From: Halopenitus malekzadehii
GTDB taxonomy: Archaea > Halobacteriota > Halobacteria > Halobacteriales > Haloferacaceae
DNA: 64,000 nucleotides
NCBI RefSeq assembly: GCF_900108505.1
Contig: NZ_FNWU01000001.1
Coordinates: 760,725-824,724 of the forward strand
Direction: 5' to 3'
Below, piece by piece: positions 53,079 to 63,563 of this stretch. The notes beneath the pieces were generated by a model. It saw only the letters and a program-made list of their open reading frames with translations, had not been told where the DNA came from and did not search any database. Each line of letters begins with the position of its first letter. Position 1 is the first letter of the stretch. The position numbers were made by a program, and so were the translations under genes.

Positions 53079-53153
53079 GGGCGCTTAGCTCAGTTTGGAC
53101 AGAGTGCTTGGCTTCGGACCAAGTTGTCGGGGGTTCAAATCCTCCAGCGCCCA
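53079..53153 (+). tRNA. tRNA-Arg (anticodon TCG)
   Basis: The acceptor stem is GGGCGCT (53079-53085) with AGCGCCC (53146-53152) and discriminator A at 53153. The anticodon stem is CTTGG/CCAAG with loop CTTCGGA, giving anticodon TCG at 53114-53116, which reads CGA. The T arm contains GGTTCAAATCC. CCA is not encoded and no intron is seen. The accessory island begins directly downstream. Confidence 0.95.
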
Positions 53154-53327: not shown

Positions 53328-54494
53328 TTACCCGGTGGAGGAGGTACACCTTCGACACCGAAGCGAGTTTTTGATGGTCGTTACCGGGTTCTCCGCGGAG
53401 AATACCCGGTCACACGACGAGCACCGTCTGTCGTCGGTGATTCCGATACCGCTTCCGTATCCGACGGTGACCGTCCGGGTCACTCCGTCGTGGGTCAATT
53501 CGACGTCGAGCTCCCCCCGTTCGTATTCCACCTCCGTTATCGTGAGCGGGTTCACCCGGACATCCAGTGCATGTCGATCACGAATCTCCCCCTGTTTGTG
53601 TGGGAATCCGTGGTCTCGCCGTTCGCGTAGATCACGTAATTCGGAAGTGACCCTCTCGGTTTCCGTGTTGACCTCCTTTCGCTCCTGTAGCGCCTCTACG
53701 TGGCTCTTTTGATCACCGTCGTTGATCGTCTCACTCAGTTCATCGACCTTCGACGACAGCTTCGAGCGTTCCGTTTCCAGCTCCCGGATACGCTGTTGTT
53801 GCAATCGGCGGTACTCTTCGAGTTCTGCGTCCGCAGCGCTGGATGCCTTCCTGTGGACGTCGTCGATCTCGGTCTGAACCGTCTCCAGTAGCTGATCCCG
53901 GGCCGTATCAAGCAGTGAGCGTGCCTCGGATTCCGTTAGTGACGATCGAGACGTCCTCTCCGTCGTCTCCGTCGTCACCGACGTGGTTCGGAGGAATGCC
54001 GCTTCCAGCGCCGGGAGACGGTTCTCCGAGCGGCGATCGATGGCACAGGCTCGAAGGAACTCACGTTGATACTCGCTAACGGTCTCGACACTCACCGTGA
54101 AGAGCACGACGACCGCCGATCGATCGTAATACGGCGTGAATCGGGCGCGTCTCACTTCGACGTCGTTTCCGTGCAGCCACTGTGGAACCGCCACTTCGGC
54201 TTGATCGGTTGCCATCGACAGTTTTCCGGTGGGACAACGTTCACTCGCATCTCCGAGTAGCCGTTGAAAGAACTCACTCTCCGGATGAAGGGACGCTCCA
54301 GCGGCATCGGCTTCGAGGTCGTTCCCACAGCGCACGGAGAGGCTCCCGGCTGGCAATTCCGTGTCCGCGTCGTCGGGGATCGTGACCTCCCACCGCGTCT
54401 CCCGTTTCTCGACGGCACCACCGAGCGACTCGATGTAGCGTTCAGTAACTGCCTCGACTGCGGACTGTGTCACCGCGAGTGCCGCATCAGTCAT
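53328..54494 (-). CDS. Coiled-coil protein with C-terminal zinc ribbon, helicase partner
   Basis: A 388-residue protein. The N-terminal alpha/beta domain (about 1-165) includes RRARFTPYYDRSAVVVLFTVSVETV and resembles the C-terminal module of RapA-like SNF2 enzymes. A long coiled coil follows (about 190-285; EEYRRLQQQRIRELETERSKL). A beta-rich segment leads to CSSC ... CRRC at the C-terminus, probably a zinc ribbon. Its ATG overlaps the helicase stop by 8 nt, so it is translated with the helicase. It may tether the helicase to DNA or to a partner. The function is unknown. Confidence 0.75.
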   Translation of the reverse strand: MTDAALAVTQSAVEAVTERYIESLGGAVEKRETRWEVTIPDDADTELPAGSLSVRCGNDLEADAAGASLHPESEFFQRLLGDASERCPTGKLSMATDQAEVAVPQWLHGNDVEVRRARFTPYYDRSAVVVLFTVSVETVSEYQREFLRACAIDRRSENRLPALEAAFLRTTSVTTETTERTSRSSLTESEARSLLDTARDQLLETVQTEIDDVHRKASSAADAELEEYRRLQQQRIRELETERSKLSSKVDELSETINDGDQKSHVEALQERKEVNTETERVTSELRDLRERRDHGFPHKQGEIRDRHALDVRVNPLTITEVEYERGELDVELTHDGVTRTVTVGYGSGIGITDDRRCSSCDRVFSAENPVTTIKNSLRCRRCTSSTG

Positions 54495-56241
54495 CGCTTG
54501 CTCCCAGATCGAAGCCTTCGAAAACGCCGCTGTTGAACTCCTCCAGCTTGTCAGCGAGTTCGCGTTGCTCCTGTAGATCGACGGCCATCGCGTCGAAGTC
54601 GTTCTCGAGATCGACGTCGGAATCAGCGTTCACGAGCCGCTCGAAGATGTGGTCTTCGAAGCTCGTTCCCGATTCCTCCAAGCGACTCAGGATCGAGCTC
54701 AGTTCTCCAACGCTCTGCTGGAACAGATCGATCTTGTGGTACAACCGTTCCAGTACGTACTCTTCGATCGTGTCCTTCAACGCCATGTTGAAGACGAAGA
54801 CGTCTCGTTTCTGCCCGATTCGATGTATCCGACCGATGCGCTGTTCGACGCGCATCGGGTTCCAGGGCAAGTCCAGATTGACCAACATATTACAAAACTG
54901 CAAATTCCGGCCTTCGCTCATCGCGTCGGTTGAAACGAGGATTCCCCCCTCGGCTTCGAAGTCTTCGACGATCTGCTCCTTCTCGCTGCTCGAGTGCCCG
55001 CCGTGGAACGCGTGTACCGTGTAGCCCTCCGCAGCGAGTCTATCGAGAATCTGCCGTTGAGTTGCTCGGAACTGCGTGAAGACGATGACCCTCCCCATCT
55101 CGACGGTGTCGCGGGCCTCTTCGACGATGTCCAAGAGTCGCTCCTGTTTGGTCACCGTCTCGATCTCGTCGATCAGATCCAGGATGGTCTCCAGGTCGTC
55201 CGCGTGGGTGAGCGCCGACCGTTCGTCGAGTCGTTTCTCGATCGTCTCCTTGAGTGCGACCGGGCTACTGACGACCTCCTTCTGGAGGAGCATCAACACG
55301 AGCTTCTGACCCTGGTCCTGGCTGTAGGCTCCCTTGACGTAGTCCGAAACCGCTTGGTAGAGTTCGCGTTCCTTCGGTGTCGGATCGAACGTCCGTGTGT
55401 CGATCGTCCGCTCCGTGAAGTCGATGTCCGTGTCTTCCCGTCGGTTCCGGATCATCACCTCGTTCAACCGATCCTGGAGCTCGTCTCGGTTGACGAGCGT
55501 CTCCTGGTCGCCGTTCACGAAGTACTGGTGGAAGACGTCGCGTGTACCGAACAGTCCGGGCCGGAGCAGCGAGACGACGTTGTACAGGTCCGTCAGCTCG
55601 TTCTGTATCGGCGTCGCCGTCAGGAAGAACGCGTAGTTGTAGGAGAGCCGGTCGATCAGGTCATAGCGGTCCGTCGCTTCGTTCTTGACGTAGTGTGCCT
55701 CGTCGAGTACCAGAACGTCCCAATCGCGGTCGAGAACCGTCCGGCGGTGTCGCTCGCTCTTTGCAGTGTCGATGCTCGCAATGATGTAGTCGTGGGCGTC
55801 GAAGTCCTCGAATCCGTCGTCGTAGTTGCAGACGAACTCGAGTCCGAACTTCTCTCGGAGTTCAGCCTGCCACTGTTTGGCCAACTGTGCGGGAGTGAGG
55901 ATGAGGACGGATTCGTCCGTTTCACGGAAGTGCATCTCCTTGAGGATCATTCCGACCTCTATGGTCTTCCCGAGCCCGACCTCGTCTGCGAGGAGGGCCT
56001 TCCCGTCCATCTCGAAGAGGGCGCGATAGGCTGCATCCACCTGATGTTCAAGTAACTTGACGGCGTTTTCGTCCAGTTCTTTCAGTGACCGAAGCTCGGA
56101 ATCCGGTTGGCCAGCCTGGAGACGGACAGCCTGGATACTCTGTAAATGGTCTCCCTCGGTGTCGTTCTCAGACAGCGAATCGAGAAGATCGTCAGCAGAT
56201 TCGTGTGTGACCTCGACATCCACGAGGTCGTATCCGCTCAT
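54487..56241 (-). CDS. SNF2-family DNA helicase/translocase
   Basis: A 584-residue superfamily-2 ATPase: LADEVGLGKTIEVGMIL (motif I), DVLVLDEAHYVKN (motif II, DEAH), FLTATPIQN (motif III), VIVFTQFRATQRQIL (motif IV), STDAMSEGRNLQ (motif V) and QRIGRIHRIGQ (motif VI). The order and spacing are RapA/DrmD/BrxH-like. It probably moves on double-stranded DNA during restriction or repair. ATG at 56241 (MSGYDLVDVEV) is preferred; the open frame upstream to 56427 overlaps the divergent promoter region. It starts an operon with the zinc-ribbon protein. Confidence 0.88.
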   Translation of the reverse strand: MSGYDLVDVEVTHESADDLLDSLSENDTEGDHLQSIQAVRLQAGQPDSELRSLKELDENAVKLLEHQVDAAYRALFEMDGKALLADEVGLGKTIEVGMILKEMHFRETDESVLILTPAQLAKQWQAELREKFGLEFVCNYDDGFEDFDAHDYIIASIDTAKSERHRRTVLDRDWDVLVLDEAHYVKNEATDRYDLIDRLSYNYAFFLTATPIQNELTDLYNVVSLLRPGLFGTRDVFHQYFVNGDQETLVNRDELQDRLNEVMIRNRREDTDIDFTERTIDTRTFDPTPKERELYQAVSDYVKGAYSQDQGQKLVLMLLQKEVVSSPVALKETIEKRLDERSALTHADDLETILDLIDEIETVTKQERLLDIVEEARDTVEMGRVIVFTQFRATQRQILDRLAAEGYTVHAFHGGHSSSEKEQIVEDFEAEGGILVSTDAMSEGRNLQFCNMLVNLDLPWNPMRVEQRIGRIHRIGQKRDVFVFNMALKDTIEEYVLERLYHKIDLFQQSVGELSSILSRLEESGTSFEDHIFERLVNADSDVDLENDFDAMAVDLQEQRELADKLEEFNSGVFEGFDLGASDD

Positions 56242-56386
56242 ACGTTCGTAGAAACAGGTGTGCGTGAAATACGTTTTGTGACCGACAATCGTGGATCGGT
56301 ACGCAGTACTGTTGTTGCGCCTCGGGCTGAGTTCAACGGGACCATAGTGTTTATTGGGTGCCACTGAGGTGTGTTTAAGTATCAAG
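56242..56386. promoter_or_regulatory. Bidirectional promoter spacer of the defence-like locus
   Basis: The 145-nt spacer separates the leftward helicase operon from the rightward ATPase gene. For the plus strand, TTTATT at 56350-56355 lies about 32 nt before the ATG and TTTAAG at 56374-56379 is closer. The minus-strand promoter is not clear. Co-regulation of both halves is likely. Confidence 0.5.
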
Positions 56387-59300
56387 ATGGCACAGTCAGG
56401 ATCCTTATCGAACACCCTCGAAGACACGGTGACCCTCAGCCGCGAGCTTCGGGAGGAGGGGCAGATCGACGGGCAGGTAAAACTCTACAACGTCGACGAC
56501 GACGACGAATTCGAATCTGACGCGGAACTCTTCTTCGAGCGGACGCTGATGACGCAGGGCCTTCGAGAGGCCCTCTCGATCCTCCGTGATTCGTTAACTG
56601 GCGACGATCCACGCGGGACGCACATCCTCTACGGGCCGTACGGCAGCGGGAAGTCCCACCAGATGGTGGCGCTGTACCACTGTTTCGACGATCCTGCGGC
56701 GGCAGGGACGTGGGCGAGTGATTCGGTCGAAGGGTTTGACGCCGCACTTCCGGAGTCGGCGACGCCGATCACGGTTGCGATGCAGAACGAACAGTACGAG
56801 TACCTCTGGGAGCCGTTCTTCGAGGCGCTCGATCACGATCCAGGAACGTTCGAGTCGGGTGGCTATCCCGATATGCAGACGATTCAGGAGGCCGTCGGCG
56901 AAGACACGGTCGCATTTTTCGTAGACGAGCTGGAGGACTGGTTCGACACGCTACAGGGCGACCGCAAGAGCGCGAACAAGGCGTTCCTCCAGTCGCTGCT
57001 CGAATCGACGGCGCTCTCTGATCTCGAACTCTACACTATCGTCTCGGTACTCCGTGAAGGGTCCGAGGTTCACGACATTCTGAATCGGGAACAGGCGGTC
57101 GAGGTCAACATGAACAACCAGGTGGACAAGCGCGAGGTCCTGCGCCACCGCCTGATCGACTCCGTCGACGAGGGCGCGGCCCGCGAGATCGTCAACGGGT
57201 ACTTCGACGCATACGACCAAGCCGATGGGCACGTCGATCTCCCCGACGACTTGCTGTCGGAGATGCACGACCTCTATCCGTTCCATCCTGTGCTTCTGGA
57301 TGCGCTTGAGACGCGCTACTACGCCGACGAGGGCAACCAGAACACCCGCGGGATGATCTACCTCTTCTCGAAGGTTCTCCTGCAGATGCAGGATCAGACG
57401 GACCTGATCACACACGGCGACATCGACGCCATCGAGTTCGAGGACGAACTGGCGAAGATCAACTACGAACGACTGAACGCCGCCACCGGAGACATCACAA
57501 GCCGTATCGACGTCGACGACGTGCCTCACGGTCGTCGCATCCTGAACACGATTCTCCTGTACTCGCTGAAGCCGAGCGAGGGCGAGGGTGCGGAGGTCTC
57601 GGAGATCGTGATGGGTGCCTACCAGACGGGTGATCTCGTCTCCGACGTCGTCCTCAACCTCGAACGGTTGCACGGCGTCGCGTGGCACCTCCACAAACTG
57701 AACGGAAAGTACGCCATCCGGGACCGACAGAACCCCAACGCGCTCATCCGGAACGCAGCCGTGGACGTGTCGGAGACGTCGGCGAAGGCCGAGATCGCGG
57801 ACTTCATTACGGATATCTTCGGCTCGAACGCGTACCCGGTCGGGTTCCGGACGAACGACATGCGAGACATCCCGGACGATCGCGACGTCAAAGTCGTCGT
57901 AAAGGACAGCCAGTGGAGCCAGGAGGAAGTGAAGAAAGTCATCACCAACGATGGCCGCGGACGCGAGTGGCGCAACACGCTCGTGTTCGTCCAACCTTCG
58001 GGCGACAAGGCCATCGAGTCCGGCACACGGTACATCGACAAGGCACGATACATCGAGGGTGCGCGGCAGGTACTCGCGGACGAGTCACTCGATGACGAGA
58101 TCCGCACGTCGATTCAGCGTATGAAGGAGCAGGAGGAGACCGAACTCCGCGAGGAGCTGCAGCTCCTGTACGGGGAAGTGCTCGACGGTGACGACCTCCT
58201 CAACGAGTTCGATCTCGCGGCGCCGATGGATCTCGACGTCTTCGTCCACGACGAGGCGGAACTCGACGCCTCGAACATTGCGGACTCCGCGGCGGCGGAC
58301 CCGTTTGACCTCCGGTCGCACGTCTGGGAGATCGCCGCGGACCTGCTGGATCGACGCGGGGAGATCTCGGTCGAGGACGTCTACGAACAGTTCCTCCGTG
58401 ACCCGGAGCTCCCGATTCCCGGCAGCGCGAACGACGTGTTGAACGCGACCGTGGAGGCGCTCGACGGGAAGCCGGTGCTGGCGCGTGATTCGGACGGGTT
58501 CAGTGAGGACCTCTCCGGGAGTTCACTCGACACCGTGCTCGTTCGGCGGGACGACGTCGACGTGTGGGGCGTCGACGACGTCGAACGGGAGCTGCGCCAG
58601 CGGTTCGGGAGCGGGACGACCGCACTCGACATCGGCAACTTCGAGCTGGAGCTCGTCGCGGACGGCGAGATCTGGGTCGACGGCGACACCCACGACGTCG
58701 TGATGCGAGCCATCGGCCGTCTCAACCGCGAGGACCAGTACGTCATCGTGAAGGGGAATGAGATCCTCGACAAGCCGCAGCCCGATGCGACGCTCCGTGA
58801 CGTCGGCGGGGCGGCGGTCGTCGGCGCGTCCGCGCTCGTGGACCGCATCGAGGCGCACATCGACGACGACGGGTACGCGACCCTCGAGACGATCATCGGG
58901 GCGGTCCGGTCGGACGAAGCGGTGTTCCTGCCGCCGGACGAGACCGAATCGGTTGCTCGTGAGGCGGTCAACGAGTTCCTCGTCGACGACTACGTGCTGG
59001 AGGCCGGCGGTCGGTATCTCGGATCGCTCGGCGATCGCGAGCCGACCACCGTCAAGATCGTCCCGACGGTATCCGACCGAATCGGTGACCAGATTCTGGC
59101 GTACATCGAGGACTTGGAGCCGGGTGACCAGTTCACGGTCAACAAGGTCACCGACCGCTTCGACGACAGCGTCACCGAGTACATGGTGCGGACGTTCCTG
59201 CTGGAGAACATCGGGAAGGACGAGGAACCGGAGTACGTGGTCAACACGACCGGGTCGGACAAGGCCACCGACTGGGTGCCCGGCTACCCGTTCCGGAAGG

Positions 59301-59596
59301 CCGACACGGAGGCAGACACGTGGCGCTTCGAGTACAACGGCGACGACGTCGCCGCGATGCGGAGCAAGTGGCGGAACAACCACCAGACGGGGAGCGTCGA
59401 GTACGGCGACGTCACGTTTATGCTGCCCGACAGGGAGGGCGTTCCCAGCGCGCTGCAGGGAACCGTCGACGTCGAGCGCACCCAGGTCAGCGTGACGCTG
59501 CGGTCCGAACAGGACTACACGAAGGTGCAGGACCTCTTCGAGCGAATGCCGGACGAGGCGTCGAGTCTGAAGATCGAGATCAGCTTCCAGAAGTAA
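56387..59596 (+). CDS. DUF499/BrxC-like P-loop ATPase
   Basis: A protein of about 1069 residues. The N-terminal region has THILYGPYGSGKSHQMVALYH (Walker A) and VAFFVDELEDWFDTL (Walker B-like), followed by SVLREGSEVHDILNRE (sensor-like) and FHPVLLDALETRYY (lid). The C-terminal half contains two repeats of winged-helix-like and beta domains. This is the layout of DUF499 and BrxC/PglY ATPases of phage-defence systems, which work with a DNA methyltransferase. It faces the helicase operon, and a DUF1156-type methyltransferase lies about 1.3 kb downstream. Confidence 0.8.
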   Translation: MAQSGSLSNTLEDTVTLSRELREEGQIDGQVKLYNVDDDDEFESDAELFFERTLMTQGLREALSILRDSLTGDDPRGTHILYGPYGSGKSHQMVALYHCFDDPAAAGTWASDSVEGFDAALPESATPITVAMQNEQYEYLWEPFFEALDHDPGTFESGGYPDMQTIQEAVGEDTVAFFVDELEDWFDTLQGDRKSANKAFLQSLLESTALSDLELYTIVSVLREGSEVHDILNREQAVEVNMNNQVDKREVLRHRLIDSVDEGAAREIVNGYFDAYDQADGHVDLPDDLLSEMHDLYPFHPVLLDALETRYYADEGNQNTRGMIYLFSKVLLQMQDQTDLITHGDIDAIEFEDELAKINYERLNAATGDITSRIDVDDVPHGRRILNTILLYSLKPSEGEGAEVSEIVMGAYQTGDLVSDVVLNLERLHGVAWHLHKLNGKYAIRDRQNPNALIRNAAVDVSETSAKAEIADFITDIFGSNAYPVGFRTNDMRDIPDDRDVKVVVKDSQWSQEEVKKVITNDGRGREWRNTLVFVQPSGDKAIESGTRYIDKARYIEGARQVLADESLDDEIRTSIQRMKEQEETELREELQLLYGEVLDGDDLLNEFDLAAPMDLDVFVHDEAELDASNIADSAAADPFDLRSHVWEIAADLLDRRGEISVEDVYEQFLRDPELPIPGSANDVLNATVEALDGKPVLARDSDGFSEDLSGSSLDTVLVRRDDVDVWGVDDVERELRQRFGSGTTALDIGNFELELVADGEIWVDGDTHDVVMRAIGRLNREDQYVIVKGNEILDKPQPDATLRDVGGAAVVGASALVDRIEAHIDDDGYATLETIIGAVRSDEAVFLPPDETESVAREAVNEFLVDDYVLEAGGRYLGSLGDREPTTVKIVPTVSDRIGDQILAYIEDLEPGDQFTVNKVTDRFDDSVTEYMVRTFLLENIGKDEEPEYVVNTTGSDKATDWVPGYPFRKADTEADTWRFEYNGDDVAAMRSKWRNNHQTGSVEYGDVTFMLPDREGVPSALQGTVDVERTQVSVTLRSEQDYTKVQDLFERMPDEASSLKIEISFQK

Positions 59597-59599
59597 CGG

Positions 59600-59794
59600 T
59601 CACCAATACCGGAGATCGTCGACCGGTTTCTGAATCATCTCGAACACCTCCCTTGCACGGAAGACGCGGTTCCGGCTCTGTCCGGTGACCTCTTGGAGGA
59701 CCCCATCATCTTCGAGTCGTCTCACAGCAACGTTTGCGGTTCTGTATGATATTTCGATGAGATCTCCGATAGAGTTCACCGAGTTTCCAGCCAT
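59600..59794 (-). pseudogene. C-terminal wHTH remnant of a Fic-family protein
   Basis: The 64-residue frame MAGNSVNSIGDLIEISYRTANVAVRRLEDDGVL... ends RVFRAREVFEMIQKP and DDLRYW. The pattern SYRTANVAVxRLExxGVLxEVTGxxRNRxFRA is the winged helix at the C-terminus of haloarchaeal Fic/DOC proteins. The Fic catalytic domain is missing and a stop codon lies a few codons upstream. It abuts the stop of the DUF499 gene in convergent orientation. Confidence 0.55.
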
Positions 59795-60163
59795 CTCCCC
59801 TGTCTCGAATCGTTAAATACCTATATTTCACCCATATCTGGGGTGCATAATGAACCCAATCCGGATATCGGTTCAATATGGGCTCGCCAAGACGGTGCAT
59901 AGTATATCCAACCATCTGTGAAATCGGATCCGAAACACCATTCACCGAGTCTCTGCGCCAGGTTCTGTGGAGAAACGTGCTCTAATCACCGCTACAATAA
60001 GACCGTCTCACAGAAAGTATAGTGAAGTGGATCGCGGAACGCTACACGAAGTGGGAGGAGTTCGAGCCCCTGGCTGCCGAGTATGAGGTCAAACTATGAA
60101 CCGTGAGCCGACGTTCCTACCGGGGCGGCGATCTGGCTCGTGAATCGCCCGGATCACGTGTAC
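59795..60163. other. Region of decayed sequence within the island
   Basis: No intact gene was found. A plus-strand tail reading VKWIAERYTKWEEFEPL..EYEVKL ends at 60099 and looks like the last residues of a lost protein. The composition is AT-richer than core DNA. Confidence 0.4.
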
Positions 60164-60286
60164 TTACTCGTCGTCTTCGTTCTCGTCGTCGCCAGTCACC
60201 TTCGCAACCGCTTTGGAGATGATCTCGGACCCCTTCCCGCTTTTTTGGCCCTTCTCTTTCGCCTTTTCTCGACTCTCAGCGCTCAT
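60164..60286 (-). CDS. Small charged protein (40 residues)
   Basis: A Lys/Glu-rich 40-residue protein, ATG at 60286, starting MSAESREKAKEKGQKSGKGS and ending in acidic residues (DDENEDDE). No family was recognised. It is 23 nt downstream of the three-TM protein on the same strand, so it could be a co-transcribed immunity or accessory peptide. It may not be a real gene. Confidence 0.45.
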   Translation of the reverse strand: MSAESREKAKEKGQKSGKGSEIISKAVAKVTGDDENEDDE

Positions 60287-60309
60287 ACGATCGTGTACAC
60301 AGTTCTCAC

Positions 60310-60780
60310 TTAAATAGCTGCGGCACAGACGGCCGCAATGATACCGAGGACGAGGGAGACTTGCGTGGCGGTCAACCACTTCGAGTTACGCCGCACGTCG
60401 TCGTAGTTCTCGGCGATCATTCCCGCCATCGTCTTCAGAAGATCCACTTCCCACGGTGGATCTGAAAAATCGTCCCTAGCCAGTTCTTCGATGTATTCTC
60501 CTCCCGGTCCAACGTAGAGATTCGATTCGTTGTACGTGATGATTCCACAAATCGTGGACACCAATAGGAACAGAAATGCGACTTGAAGGGTAGCAGTGTT
60601 GAACAGATCCGGTGCGAACTGGAGGCCAGTAATCAACAGTCCCAGAAGAACAGCGTTCAGCCGGACAGTCCGCATCGCCTTGTCATCGATGTCGGTCATG
60701 GTGGCGTTCTGCGCGTCCATCACTGCCCGTGCCTCGGTGTAGGCTATTTCTCGGCGCTTATCCGTCCAGTCGCCATCCAT
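60310..60780 (-). CDS. Three-TM membrane protein, possible defence effector
   Basis: A 156-residue protein with an N-terminal cytosolic helix (WTDKRREIAYTEARAVMDAQN), two adjacent TM helices (about 43-60 and 64-84), a cytosolic domain containing GPGGEYIEELARDDFSDPPW, and a C-terminal TM helix (about 135-155). The plan is like small membrane effectors of the SLATT or Pycsar-TM type seen with defence genes, but I could not confirm a family. It is divergent from the methyltransferase with a 122-nt spacer. Confidence 0.65.
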   Translation of the reverse strand: MDGDWTDKRREIAYTEARAVMDAQNATMTDIDDKAMRTVRLNAVLLGLLITGLQFAPDLFNTATLQVAFLFLLVSTICGIITYNESNLYVGPGGEYIEELARDDFSDPPWEVDLLKTMAGMIAENYDDVRRNSKWLTATQVSLVLGIIAAVCAAAI

Positions 60781-60902
60781 ATCGAGACCCGTCTCGTGTC
60801 GTTACTAAACGGTTACTCCCCGACGCTCGTTTCTTTGTCCGGCGAGCCGACGAGAACGCACACTTATGAAGCTCCTGTGTTATCCCTTGCACATACCGAA
60901 CT

Positions 60903-63563
60903 ATGGCTGAACAATCCGGGTCCTCGACGTCGCGCCACGATCGGACCGAACTCCCGATCGAACGCGGATTTCCGATCGAGCGCGTGAACGAGATCGCCGA
61001 GAAGGAGGGGCGGGCAAAGATGTACTACCGACCCATCTACACGATGCACAAGTGGTGGGCGCGACGCCTGGGCTGTGTCTTCCGGGCGGTCTCGCTGTAC
61101 ACGCTGCTCGACGATCCGGAGGCGGTCTCCGTCTACGAACCGGGTCACGAGGGGAGCACGCTCGCGTCCTATGGCGACGACGCCGACGGCGAGTCCGACC
61201 TCGACGTCGCCTCGCTGCTCGAACGCGTGGATATGTCCGACCCGGAGAGCCTCTGGGAACTCTACCCCAAGGACGTTCGTGTCGAGGACAAGAAGATCCT
61301 CGATCCGTTCATGGGCGGCGGCACGTCGCTCGTCGAGGCGTCGCGCTTCGGTGCTGAGGTCGTCGGCAACGACCTGAACCCGGTCGCGTGGTTCGTCACG
61401 AAGAAAGAACTCGAAGCAGGACAGACGGACGTCGAAGAGCTTGAGGAAGCCTTTGAGCAGGTGAAGGAGGACGTCGCCGACGAGATCACGCAGTACTACA
61501 AGACGCCTTGTCCGAATGGTGATCACGAAGCGGACGTGATGTACAACTTCTGGGTGAAGGAGTTGGACTGCGTCTCCTGTGGGCACACGGTTCCGCTGTT
61601 CAAGGACTACCGTGTCGCTGCTGGGCGCTACGAGAACGACGACAAGTACAATGTCCTCTGTCCGGGCTGTGGGTCAGTGACACTGGTGGACGACTGGCAG
61701 TCGGAAAGTGTCTGTAACGACTGTGGACATGGGTTCATTCCTAAGGAAGGGAACGTCTCACGCGGTGGTAAGTATAATTGTCCAGATTGTGGCCAAAAGT
61801 ACGCGATTACAGATGCGATTCAGGAACAGGACGGATACGATCTCCGTCTCTACGCTCTTGAGTACTATTGTGAGGTTTGCGATGAGGCAAACGAAGACAG
61901 GAGCATCCAGAAGGGGTATAAAAAGGCGGAAGCCGTCGATATAGGACTATTCGAAGATGCTCAACAGGAGTGGAAAGATAGCCCCGAACTTCGAGACTTT
62001 GTGCCCGATGAGGAAATCCCACCCGGTCATATGACTTCTGAACGAAATCCCGTTTTCGACCATGGGTTTGAAAAATGGGTTGACTTCTTCAATGATAGGC
62101 AACTTCTAGTCTTGTCGAAACTATTGCGAAGTATATCTCAGGTAGAGGACCGCAACGTCCGTGAGTATCTACTACTTGCGTTCAGTGACTCTCTAAATTT
62201 CAATAATTCACATACAGGGTATCAAGCGGCGATGAACAAAATCCAGCACCTGTTTAAAACCAATTCCTTCGACCCCCCACAAACCCCCTGTGAAAGTAAT
62301 CTCTGGGGAACAAAATATGGGATGGGGAGTTTCACTAAGACATTTGAACTTGTCAAAAGGGGGGTCAATTATGCCCATGCACCTACGGAACGGTACGTTG
62401 ATAATGGAGAAAGTAAAGAAACCGAGCCATTCTCACAGCCGATAGGTGGCGACTTTACTGTCAATCAGGGAGATATGCGGCAGATCAAGGCCACTGATGA
62501 GTATGATGCAGTGATCACAGATCCACCATACTACGATAATATCATGTATTCCGAGGTGGCTGATTTCTACTATGTATGGCAGAAAATTCTACTTGAGGGG
62601 AGTTACGATGGATTTAGTGAAGAGAAGACCCCTCGCGCGGAGTCAATCGTTACAAATCCCTATCTAGAAAAGACTGCTGAGGATTTCGAATCTGAATTGC
62701 AGCAATCATTTTCAGTTATCCATCGTGCTCTCAAAAATGAGGGCACACTCGCTTTTACTTATCACCACAGCGACTCCGAATCCTGGGGTGAACTTCTCGA
62801 ATCGCTCTGTGACGTTGGATTCGAAGTCACAGCCACCTATCCAATTACCGCTGACCTCCACAAGTTCATCTCCGGTGAAGCAGTCTCTTTCGACATCGTC
62901 GTCGTCGCCCGCCCCATCGATGACACCGAACCCGCTTCGTGGAAGTCACTCCGCCGCGACATCTACCGCACGGCCCGGCGCACTCGCCAGCAACTCGAAG
63001 AAAACCGCGACCTCTCCCGCGGCGACATCGGCGTGATGGAGATGGGCGCGTGTTTCCGCGAGTACTCCAAGCATCACGGGAAGGTGCAACGCGACGGCGA
63101 GATCATGAGCGCGAAGGATGTCGTCCAGGAGATTTACGGCATCATCCAAGAGGCCAGCGACATCGGCGTCGAGGACGTGTTCATCGATCTCCTCGACACG
63201 TCGAACGTCTCCTACGACGACGTCAACAAGCTCTGCCGCGGGACGAACGCCACACCGGAGGACCTCAAGGGCACGCGCCTGTACAACCAGGACGACGGCT
63301 TCGAACTCGGCACCTGGGACAACGAGAAGCGCCAGGCGTACATCCAGGAGCGCGTCAACGGCGACGGCGGCGACCACCTCTCGAACCTCGACAAGCTCCA
63401 GTTCCTCCGCTACCGCTACGAGAAGGGGCAGGCGGTCCAGAACTACGTTGAGAAGTGGGACGTCGATGACGACCTGCGCGAACTCGCCGGTCGGCTCGCC
63501 GACGTGACCGGCGACGACACGTACACGCGGGTGCTCGGAGACCGGGATATCACGAGCTACTGA
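60903..63563 (+). CDS. DUF1156-type DNA methyltransferase (adenine-specific, PglXI-like)
   Basis: An 886-residue methyltransferase. The N-terminal DUF1156 region has MYYRPIYTMHKWWARRLG. The SAM motif is ILDPFMGGGTSLVEASRFG and the catalytic motif is AVITDPPYYDNIMYSE (DPPY). Several CxxC pairs between residues about 200 and 325 suggest inserted zinc ribbons. The order is that of PglXI of BREX type 3 and other DUF1156 defence methylases. The central part (about 61700-62880) is AT-rich with unusual codons compared with both ends. It presumably marks self DNA for the associated ATPase and helicase. Confidence 0.84.
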   Translation: MAEQSGSSTSRHDRTELPIERGFPIERVNEIAEKEGRAKMYYRPIYTMHKWWARRLGCVFRAVSLYTLLDDPEAVSVYEPGHEGSTLASYGDDADGESDLDVASLLERVDMSDPESLWELYPKDVRVEDKKILDPFMGGGTSLVEASRFGAEVVGNDLNPVAWFVTKKELEAGQTDVEELEEAFEQVKEDVADEITQYYKTPCPNGDHEADVMYNFWVKELDCVSCGHTVPLFKDYRVAAGRYENDDKYNVLCPGCGSVTLVDDWQSESVCNDCGHGFIPKEGNVSRGGKYNCPDCGQKYAITDAIQEQDGYDLRLYALEYYCEVCDEANEDRSIQKGYKKAEAVDIGLFEDAQQEWKDSPELRDFVPDEEIPPGHMTSERNPVFDHGFEKWVDFFNDRQLLVLSKLLRSISQVEDRNVREYLLLAFSDSLNFNNSHTGYQAAMNKIQHLFKTNSFDPPQTPCESNLWGTKYGMGSFTKTFELVKRGVNYAHAPTERYVDNGESKETEPFSQPIGGDFTVNQGDMRQIKATDEYDAVITDPPYYDNIMYSEVADFYYVWQKILLEGSYDGFSEEKTPRAESIVTNPYLEKTAEDFESELQQSFSVIHRALKNEGTLAFTYHHSDSESWGELLESLCDVGFEVTATYPITADLHKFISGEAVSFDIVVVARPIDDTEPASWKSLRRDIYRTARRTRQQLEENRDLSRGDIGVMEMGACFREYSKHHGKVQRDGEIMSAKDVVQEIYGIIQEASDIGVEDVFIDLLDTSNVSYDDVNKLCRGTNATPEDLKGTRLYNQDDGFELGTWDNEKRQAYIQERVNGDGGDHLSNLDKLQFLRYRYEKGQAVQNYVEKWDVDDDLRELAGRLADVTGDDTYTRVLGDRDITSY

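What the first reader, a model, noticed from the sequence alone, without database searches (positions are those of the whole stretch)
61700..62880. AT-rich mosaic core inside the DNA methyltransferase
The first about 800 nt and the last about 680 nt of the gene have the GC-rich codon use of core genes, while the middle is AT-rich with codons rare elsewhere (AAA, ATA, AAT, TTA) and two CTAG sites (62106, 62664), a tetramer otherwise scarce here. The frame is intact. This looks like recombinational replacement of the central segment, including the catalytic DPPY and possible target-recognition parts.
Basis: seen in the sequence. Interest (0 to 1): 0.68.

Follow-up and report, generated by a model that had tools for sequence, protein, structure and literature searches.

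The report
Swappable specificity core in archaeal DNA methyltransferase
In this salt-loving archaeon, the middle of a DNA methyltransferase that belongs to a virus-defence gene cluster has a different history from the two ends of its gene, and relatives in many genera carry dozens of different middles between nearly the same ends, so it looks like an exchangeable cartridge that decides which DNA sequence is marked as self.

Summary
In the 886-codon methyltransferase gene (60903-63563 +), GC3 is 0.82 in the ends and 0.47 in codons 306-658 (nt 61818-62876); no permutation reproduces the contrast. The DPPY motif lies inside, and both CTAG sites are real, but no in-frame TTA exists there. Among 63 haloarchaeal homologues the ends are similar (mean protein identity about 0.87 and 0.93 in the 26 closest) while the middle is hypervariable (0.64, synonymous sites near saturation). 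The three segments have mutually rejected phylogenies (all AU p<4e-4). Middle identity is bimodal: 184 pairs at 0.52-0.71, none at 0.72-0.78, 11 above. There are 53 middle classes against 28 N and 20 C classes. An AlphaFold model places the block over the distal half of the target-recognition insert plus the catalytic half of the fold. The helicase, DUF499 ATPase and McrBC-like genes of the conserved locus have no such block. Best reading: a TRD-plus-catalytic cassette exchanged in a BREX-related (Hma-like) defence system, analogous to type III mod alleles, which show the same AT-rich centre. A change of target sequence is inferred, not shown.

The parts
60903..63563 (+). DUF1156 adenine-type DNA methyltransferase, 886 aa (HmaB / PglXI-like)
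   Evidence: Pfam DUF1156, UPF0020 and MethyltransfD12 above cutoff; PADLOC best hit HmaB 4.7e-33, also PglXI
60903..61817 (+). N part (aa 1-305): DUF1156 helical domain (aa 23-74), SAM motif I LDPFMGGG (aa 133-140), strand 2, zinc-ribbon cysteines; GC3 about 0.75-0.88, falling from aa ~240; conserved between genera
61380..62450 (+). Predicted target-recognition insert (aa 160-516) between Rossmann strands 2 and 3; conserved zinc-ribbon part aa 200-322, hypervariable part aa ~320-516
   Evidence: AlphaFold2 model, mean pLDDT 85; insert position as described for this family in PMC12839542; variability
61818..62876 (+). Exchanged, AT-rich block (aa 306-658): GC3 0.47, mean pairwise protein identity 0.47-0.77 over most of it, synonymous sites near saturation, own phylogeny
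62520..62531 (+). Catalytic DPPY motif (aa 540-543), invariant in 50 homologues
62877..63560 (+). C part (aa 659-886): last strand of the fold plus a helical C-terminal region; GC3 0.83-0.97; most conserved segment (mean protein identity 0.93)
56354..59596 (+). DUF499 AAA+ ATPase of the same conserved locus (HmaC-like), no hypervariable block
   Evidence: Pfam DUF499, PADLOC HmaC; DNA identity 0.80-0.91 throughout
54487..56427 (-). SNF2-family helicase of the locus (DrmD/BrxH/HmaA-like), no fused nuclease domain detected
53328..54494 (-). 388-aa coiled-coil-like protein of unknown function, linked to the helicase in most homologous loci

Best explanation
The gene is the modification (self-marking) subunit of a conserved haloarchaeal defence locus related to the DUF499-centred BREX-related / Hma systems. 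Its central block, codons about 306-658, is an exchangeable specificity cassette holding the distal half of the target-recognition insert together with the catalytic DPPY half of the methyltransferase fold. Shown here: the block is hypervariable between near-constant ends, occurs as discrete alleles, has a different phylogeny from both ends, and is AT-rich in nearly all close relatives. Inferred: alleles are exchanged between related loci by ordinary homologous recombination in the conserved ends, drawing on an old, AT-rich pool of alleles such as those on haloarchaeal plasmids. Inferred: each allele recognises a different DNA sequence, so swapping it changes which DNA the same chassis treats as self.
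For: Shared composition valley with synonymous saturation only in the middle: 4-fold-site excess identity N 0.23, M 0.07, C 0.31 over the 26 closest homologues. AU tests reject every segment on the others' trees. Window middle grouped with L068/L009/L065 (SH-aLRT 99), rejected for N and C. Bimodal allele identity at fixed end identity, 53 middle classes; example window vs Haloferax sulfurifontis (L045): DNA N 0.87, M 0.62, C 0.95, while L045 vs Natronorubrum sulfidifaciens (L067) is 0.86/0.85/0.88. Breakpoints cluster at aa 306 (10-90%: 274-319) and aa 658 (617-680). Helicase, ATPase and McrBC-like neighbours have no comparable block and are strongly correlated with each other (Spearman 0.75-0.89) but not with N or M. 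Structure places the block over TRD plus catalytic half. GC3 of N and C covary (r 0.65) while M covaries with neither. The published type III modA12 has 40/28/40% GC for 5'/DRD/3' and en-bloc DRD transfer (PMC3311624).
Against: No recent donor of the window's own middle was found (best protein identity about 0.70-0.72, synonymous sites saturated), so the actual event is not seen. Target specificity of any allele is unknown. Part of the block is not TRD but Rossmann core, and the zinc-ribbon part of the insert lies outside the block. The first part of the gene also moves relative to the rest of the locus (N and M correlate at 0.60 among 16 full systems), so the 5' boundary is not a fixed cassette edge. 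Homologues span species and genera; no strain pair within a species was available.
Confidence: 0.8

Rival explanations
1. The middle is not exchanged; it evolves faster in place, under diversifying or relaxed selection, and its codon usage decays to AT because translational selection is weak there.
For: The middle is the region expected to be under diversifying selection, and its protein identity is lower everywhere.
Against: Discrete alleles: at equal end identity the middle is either 0.78-1.00 or 0.52-0.71 identical, with no pairs at 0.72-0.78. Conflicting phylogenies with strong support. Synonymous sites, which protein-level selection does not speed up, are saturated only in the middle. Even its well-conserved stretch aa 621-650 (protein identity 0.89) is near saturation at synonymous sites.
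Confidence: 0.07
2. It is mainly the ends that spread: a GC-rich N part and above all C part sweep through an ancestrally AT-rich gene family by recombination (possibly with GC-biased repair), leaving the old middles behind.
For: Diverged homologues L010, L016, L063 and L077 are AT-rich up to about aa 720 and GC-rich only after it, and for L010 and L063 that C part is 0.93-0.95 identical to the window's. Segment GC3 correlates with how similar a segment is to other copies (rho 0.64; partly confounded, because GC-rich third positions raise identity by chance). C is the segment least discordant with the neighbour genes (rho 0.26, not significant).
Against: Homologues that are GC-rich throughout exist (L014, L039, L074), so the ancestor need not be AT-rich; N does not follow the neighbour genes either (rho -0.28). 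The reading differs from the best one mainly in which partner is called the mover.
Confidence: 0.25
3. The AT-rich third positions are selected for themselves (translation pausing between domains, an RNA element, or an overlapping signal).
For: The valley recurs at the same place in nearly all close homologues and coincides with a domain insert.
Against: No clear synonymous conservation in the valley (4-fold identity 0.27-0.34 against 0.25-0.27 expected), as a specific signal would need; homologues with GC3 0.75-0.94 in the middle have intact frames.
Confidence: 0.04
4. Assembly or chimera artefact in this genome.
For: None found.
Against: Intact frame, pattern repeated in many independent assemblies and in the second copy of the system in the same genome.
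Confidence: 0.01

Closest known systems
DUF499-centred BREX-related (BR) systems = Hma (helicase, methylase, ATPase) systems (PMC12839542, PMC8565338)
   Same: DUF499 ATPase, DUF1156 N6-methyltransferase with target-recognition insert after strand 2 and zinc ribbons, SNF2 helicase, in one locus
   Different: Divergent (NCBIfam equivalog cut-offs not reached); no PglZ, DUF3780 or nuclease-fused helicase detected; instead a 388-aa coiled-coil protein, a 128-aa protein and an McrBC-like pair. Exchange of a TRD-plus-catalytic cassette was not found in the parts of the BR paper that were read
Type III mod (modA, modB, modD) DNA-recognition-domain alleles (PMC3311624, PMC2667262)
   Same: Conserved ends, hypervariable central recognition region moving en bloc between species; AT-rich centre (40/28/40% GC in modA12)
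   Different: Not homologous at system level; here the exchanged block also holds the DPPY catalytic half; no simple repeats or phase variation looked for or seen; spread is across many archaeal genera
Type I hsdS TRD exchange and domain movement (PMC3077401, PMC3983042)
   Same: Recombination of target-recognition modules inside a conserved enzyme changes specificity
   Different: There the TRD lies in a separate specificity subunit, with repeats guiding movement; here it lies within the catalytic subunit
Type 3 BREX PglXI (BrxXI)
   Same: Same methyltransferase architecture with internal insert-TRD (PMC12839542)
   Different: N-terminal DUF1156 domain here; no pglZ found in the conserved locus

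Membership tests
DUF499-centred BREX-related (Hma) system | DUF499 AAA+ ATPase | tested here: met
   Pfam PF04465 8.3e-11, PADLOC HmaC 9e-19
DUF499-centred BREX-related (Hma) system | N6-methyltransferase with DUF1156 N-terminus, insert-TRD after strand 2 and zinc finger | tested here: met
   Pfam DUF1156 above cutoff; insert aa 160-516 between strands 152-157 and 518-522; invariant C223, C226, C293, C296
DUF499-centred BREX-related (Hma) system | Helicase in the same locus | tested here: met
   SNF2-rel_dom 1.4e-34 at 54487-56427; HmaA profile 1.4e-57
DUF499-centred BREX-related (Hma) system | C-terminal HTH-like triad of the methyltransferase | tested here: inconclusive
   aa 680-886 is predicted mostly helical; HTH identity not tested
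BR type 1 / type 2 | Nuclease fused to the helicase (most of type 1; HKD nuclease in type 2) and standalone DUF3780 (type 2) | tested here: not met
   Helicase gives only SNF2/Helicase_C-type Pfam hits; no DUF3780 hit among the system genes tested
BR type 3 | PglZ and iSTAND genes in the core locus | tested here: not met
   No PglZ hit in any conserved gene of the locus; iSTAND not tested by structure
NCBIfam DUF1156_antiphage / DUF499_antiphage equivalogs | Curated score cut-off | tested here: not met
   141 bits vs 1000; 71 bits vs 1200
TRD allele exchange (mod / hsdS type) | Conserved ends with hypervariable recognition block as discrete alleles and conflicting phylogeny | tested here: met
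TRD allele exchange (mod / hsdS type) | Different alleles methylate different motifs | not testable with these tools
   needs methylome data

The most novel reading that the evidence does not exclude
The haloarchaeal locus is a separate BREX-related subtype whose effector is an McrBC-like pair. In it a methyltransferase cassette (target recognition plus catalytic half) circulates among many genera as dozens of AT-rich alleles, so that one conserved chassis acquires new self/non-self specificities by recombination.
Probability: 0.4. Interest if true: 0.68.

Novelty: new variant of a known kind. Interest (0 to 1): 0.52.

Why it matters
It suggests that BREX-related systems, whose target recognition is little studied, diversify specificity by swapping an internal methyltransferase cassette, as type I and type III systems do. 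It gives precise block borders (codons about 306 and 658) for testing chimeras, a ready set of about 53 natural alleles in archaea (many of them cultured), and an example in which a composition valley marks a recombining specificity module. It also points to a barrier to gene exchange that could change in one recombination step.

Tried and rejected
CTAG sites as a marker of the block: not specific to it in the family. TTA codons: none in frame. tRNA-Arg at 53079 as integration site: no repeat of its 3' end found downstream, and no tRNA in the 19 homologous loci scanned. Repeats at the block edges that might drive site-specific exchange: only short, poor matches. Viral reservoir: no match in the IMG/VR scan and only a 22% relative in Sulfolobus virus STSV2. 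PDB fold search: no match at E<=0.001, best ones generic SAM methyltransferase folds at E about 0.003-0.05, no help for the TRD. A first segment-tree run failed for a thread setting and a first large alignment for a stop codon in L079.

Full report
What is there. The gene at 60903-63563 (+) codes for an 886-aa protein with a DUF1156 domain, SAM motif I (LDPFMGGG, aa 133-140) and a catalytic DPPY (aa 540-543); Pfam and PADLOC place it with the methyltransferases HmaB and PglXI. The order motif I, long insert, DPPY is that of alpha-class adenine methyltransferases (established knowledge). The window lies in a haloarchaeal genome (relatives) at G000:C27:760725-824724, and the same genome carries a second, 78% identical copy on another contig.

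Observation. GC3 is 0.78-0.88 in aa 1-200, 0.40-0.55 in aa 281-640 and 0.85-0.97 in aa 681-880. Codons 306-658 have GC3 0.467 against 0.818 outside, beyond all permutations, including those that keep the amino acids. Nucleotides 62001-63000 form the lowest-GC kilobase of the window. The codon claims are right for AAA, AAT and ATA and wrong for TTA; both CTAG sites exist, but CTAG is not concentrated in the block across the family.

Homologues. About 47 haloarchaeal loci came from named genomes and more from the relatives search. After de-duplication 69 open frames were kept and 63 haloarchaeal ones were used for trees. The composition valley is shared: of 26 window-like homologues, 25 have GC3 lower in the middle than in the N part and all 26 lower than in the C part (means 0.70, 0.48, 0.81 for N, M, C). 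So the valley is not peculiar to this genome. More distant homologues show other mixtures: AT-rich up to about aa 720 with a GC-rich end (L010, L016, L063, L077), AT-rich nearly throughout (L009, L065), or GC-rich throughout (L014, L039, L074).

Divergence. Over the 26 closest homologues mean pairwise protein identity is 0.87, 0.64 and 0.93 for aa 1-240, 280-640 and 700-886. Excess identity at 4-fold sites over composition is 0.23, 0.07 and 0.31, so silent sites of the middle are nearly randomised while those of the ends are not. At finer scale the low-identity zone is aa 310-620, and silent saturation runs to about aa 650. In DNA the block 61800-62850 is 0.55-0.70 identical, while the helicase, DUF499 and McrBC-like genes of the locus are mostly 0.75-0.91. 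The 388-aa gene is also variable (0.59-0.69), and two cargo gaps are not conserved.

Recombination. Trees of aa 1-290, 311-640 and 671-886 reject each other in every direction (AU p from 4e-4 to below 1e-40). The window's middle is sister to L068, L009 and L065 (SH-aLRT 99); this grouping is rejected for the N part (p 2e-8) and the C part (p 4e-7), and 25 window-like sequences are not one clade for the middle (p 0.012). Among 195 pairs with N and C DNA identity at least 0.78, the middle is 0.52-0.71 in 184, 0.78 or more in 11, and never 0.72-0.78. That gap is the strongest argument for replacement by discrete alleles rather than faster change in place. Three-segment fits to 26 pairs put the borders at aa 306 (10-90%: 274-319) and 658 (617-680). 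Local identity is correlated within about aa 241-658 (with one exception, aa 431-490) and uncorrelated with aa 781-880.

Structure. An AlphaFold2 model (mean pLDDT 85) shows the first strands at 131-134 and 152-157, an insert from 160 to 516, strands at 518-522 and 534-539 (followed by DPPY), a last strand at 663-671 and a helical C-terminus. Published analysis of the same family describes the insert as the target-recognition domain with zinc fingers, and a C-terminal HTH triad (PMC12839542). The exchanged block therefore covers the distal half of the TRD and the catalytic half of the fold. The zinc-ribbon half of the insert (aa 200-305) stays with the N part.

Locus. The gene lies in a conserved set: 388-aa coiled-coil protein and SNF2 helicase (minus strand), DUF499 ATPase, methyltransferase, 128-aa protein, then McrC-like and McrB-like genes (minus strand; beyond the window end, read from L032). 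Gaps between these genes range from about zero to 6 kb and hold unrelated cargo. In 16 complete systems the helicase, DUF499, McrC and McrB identities correlate with each other (0.75-0.89) but not with the N part (-0.28) or the middle (-0.05), and weakly with the C part (0.26). The methyltransferase thus moves independently of its chassis, with N and M partly together (0.60).

Mechanism. Best reading: homologous recombination in conserved ends exchanges a specificity block between related loci; the block probably sets the methylated sequence, and the conserved helicase, ATPase and McrBC-like parts act on DNA lacking that mark. Exchange is shown; the target change and the restriction role are inferred from architecture and from published BREX-related and Hma work. 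The AT-rich state of the block is best explained by a long-lived AT-rich pool of alleles (the nearest middles, L009 and L065, come from genes that are AT-rich throughout). A contribution from GC enrichment of the frequently recombining ends is not excluded (confounded).

Relation to known systems. Type III mod genes show the same picture, including composition: modA12 has 40% GC upstream, 28% in the recognition domain and 40% downstream, with en-bloc transfer between species (PMC3311624). The phenomenon is therefore known in kind. New here, as far as the held literature shows, is its occurrence in a BREX-related/Hma-type methyltransferase in archaea, with the catalytic half included in the block; only three papers in the library mention DUF1156. 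A survey of haloarchaeal restriction-modification genes reported no TRD-type variation in their type I systems (PMC6471742).

Noticed in passing
window 59600-60850 and 63570-65060; L042-L088: Fixed slots between the conserved system genes hold variable cargo (gaps of about 0 to 6 kb; in this genome a predicted 156-aa protein and a PIN-domain protein), while compact loci such as L063 have nearly no gaps around the methyltransferase.
   Followed up: partly
L032 (beyond window end), equivalent to window 65450-68484: An McrC-like and an McrB-like AAA gene are consistently part of the locus in most homologues, possibly the restriction effector; the main BREX-related paper has no match for the term McrB.
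   Followed up: partly
L034 (G000:C14:77578-80223): The same genome carries a second full system whose methyltransferase has a different middle (DUF499, SNF2, McrB, McrC also present), suggesting two specificities in one cell.
   Followed up: partly
window 53328-54494: The 388-aa coiled-coil-like protein next to the helicase is the other fast-varying gene of the locus (DNA identity 0.59-0.69) and has no Pfam family.
   Followed up: no
window 53079-53153: A tRNA-Arg gene directly precedes the locus, but no repeat of its 3' end was found downstream and homologous loci lack it.
   Followed up: yes
L036, L037, L039 (G046:C4, G023:C5, G011:C2): Some haloarchaeal plasmids or contigs carry two or more diverged copies of this methyltransferase close together; two copies are read with one internal TAA by the search (G046:C4:26307, G023:C5:56178).
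   Followed up: no
L082 vs window 62469-65444: In L082 the homology to the window continues without a break from the methyltransferase C part through the downstream PIN cargo (88% identity), suggesting that C part and cargo can travel together.
   Followed up: no
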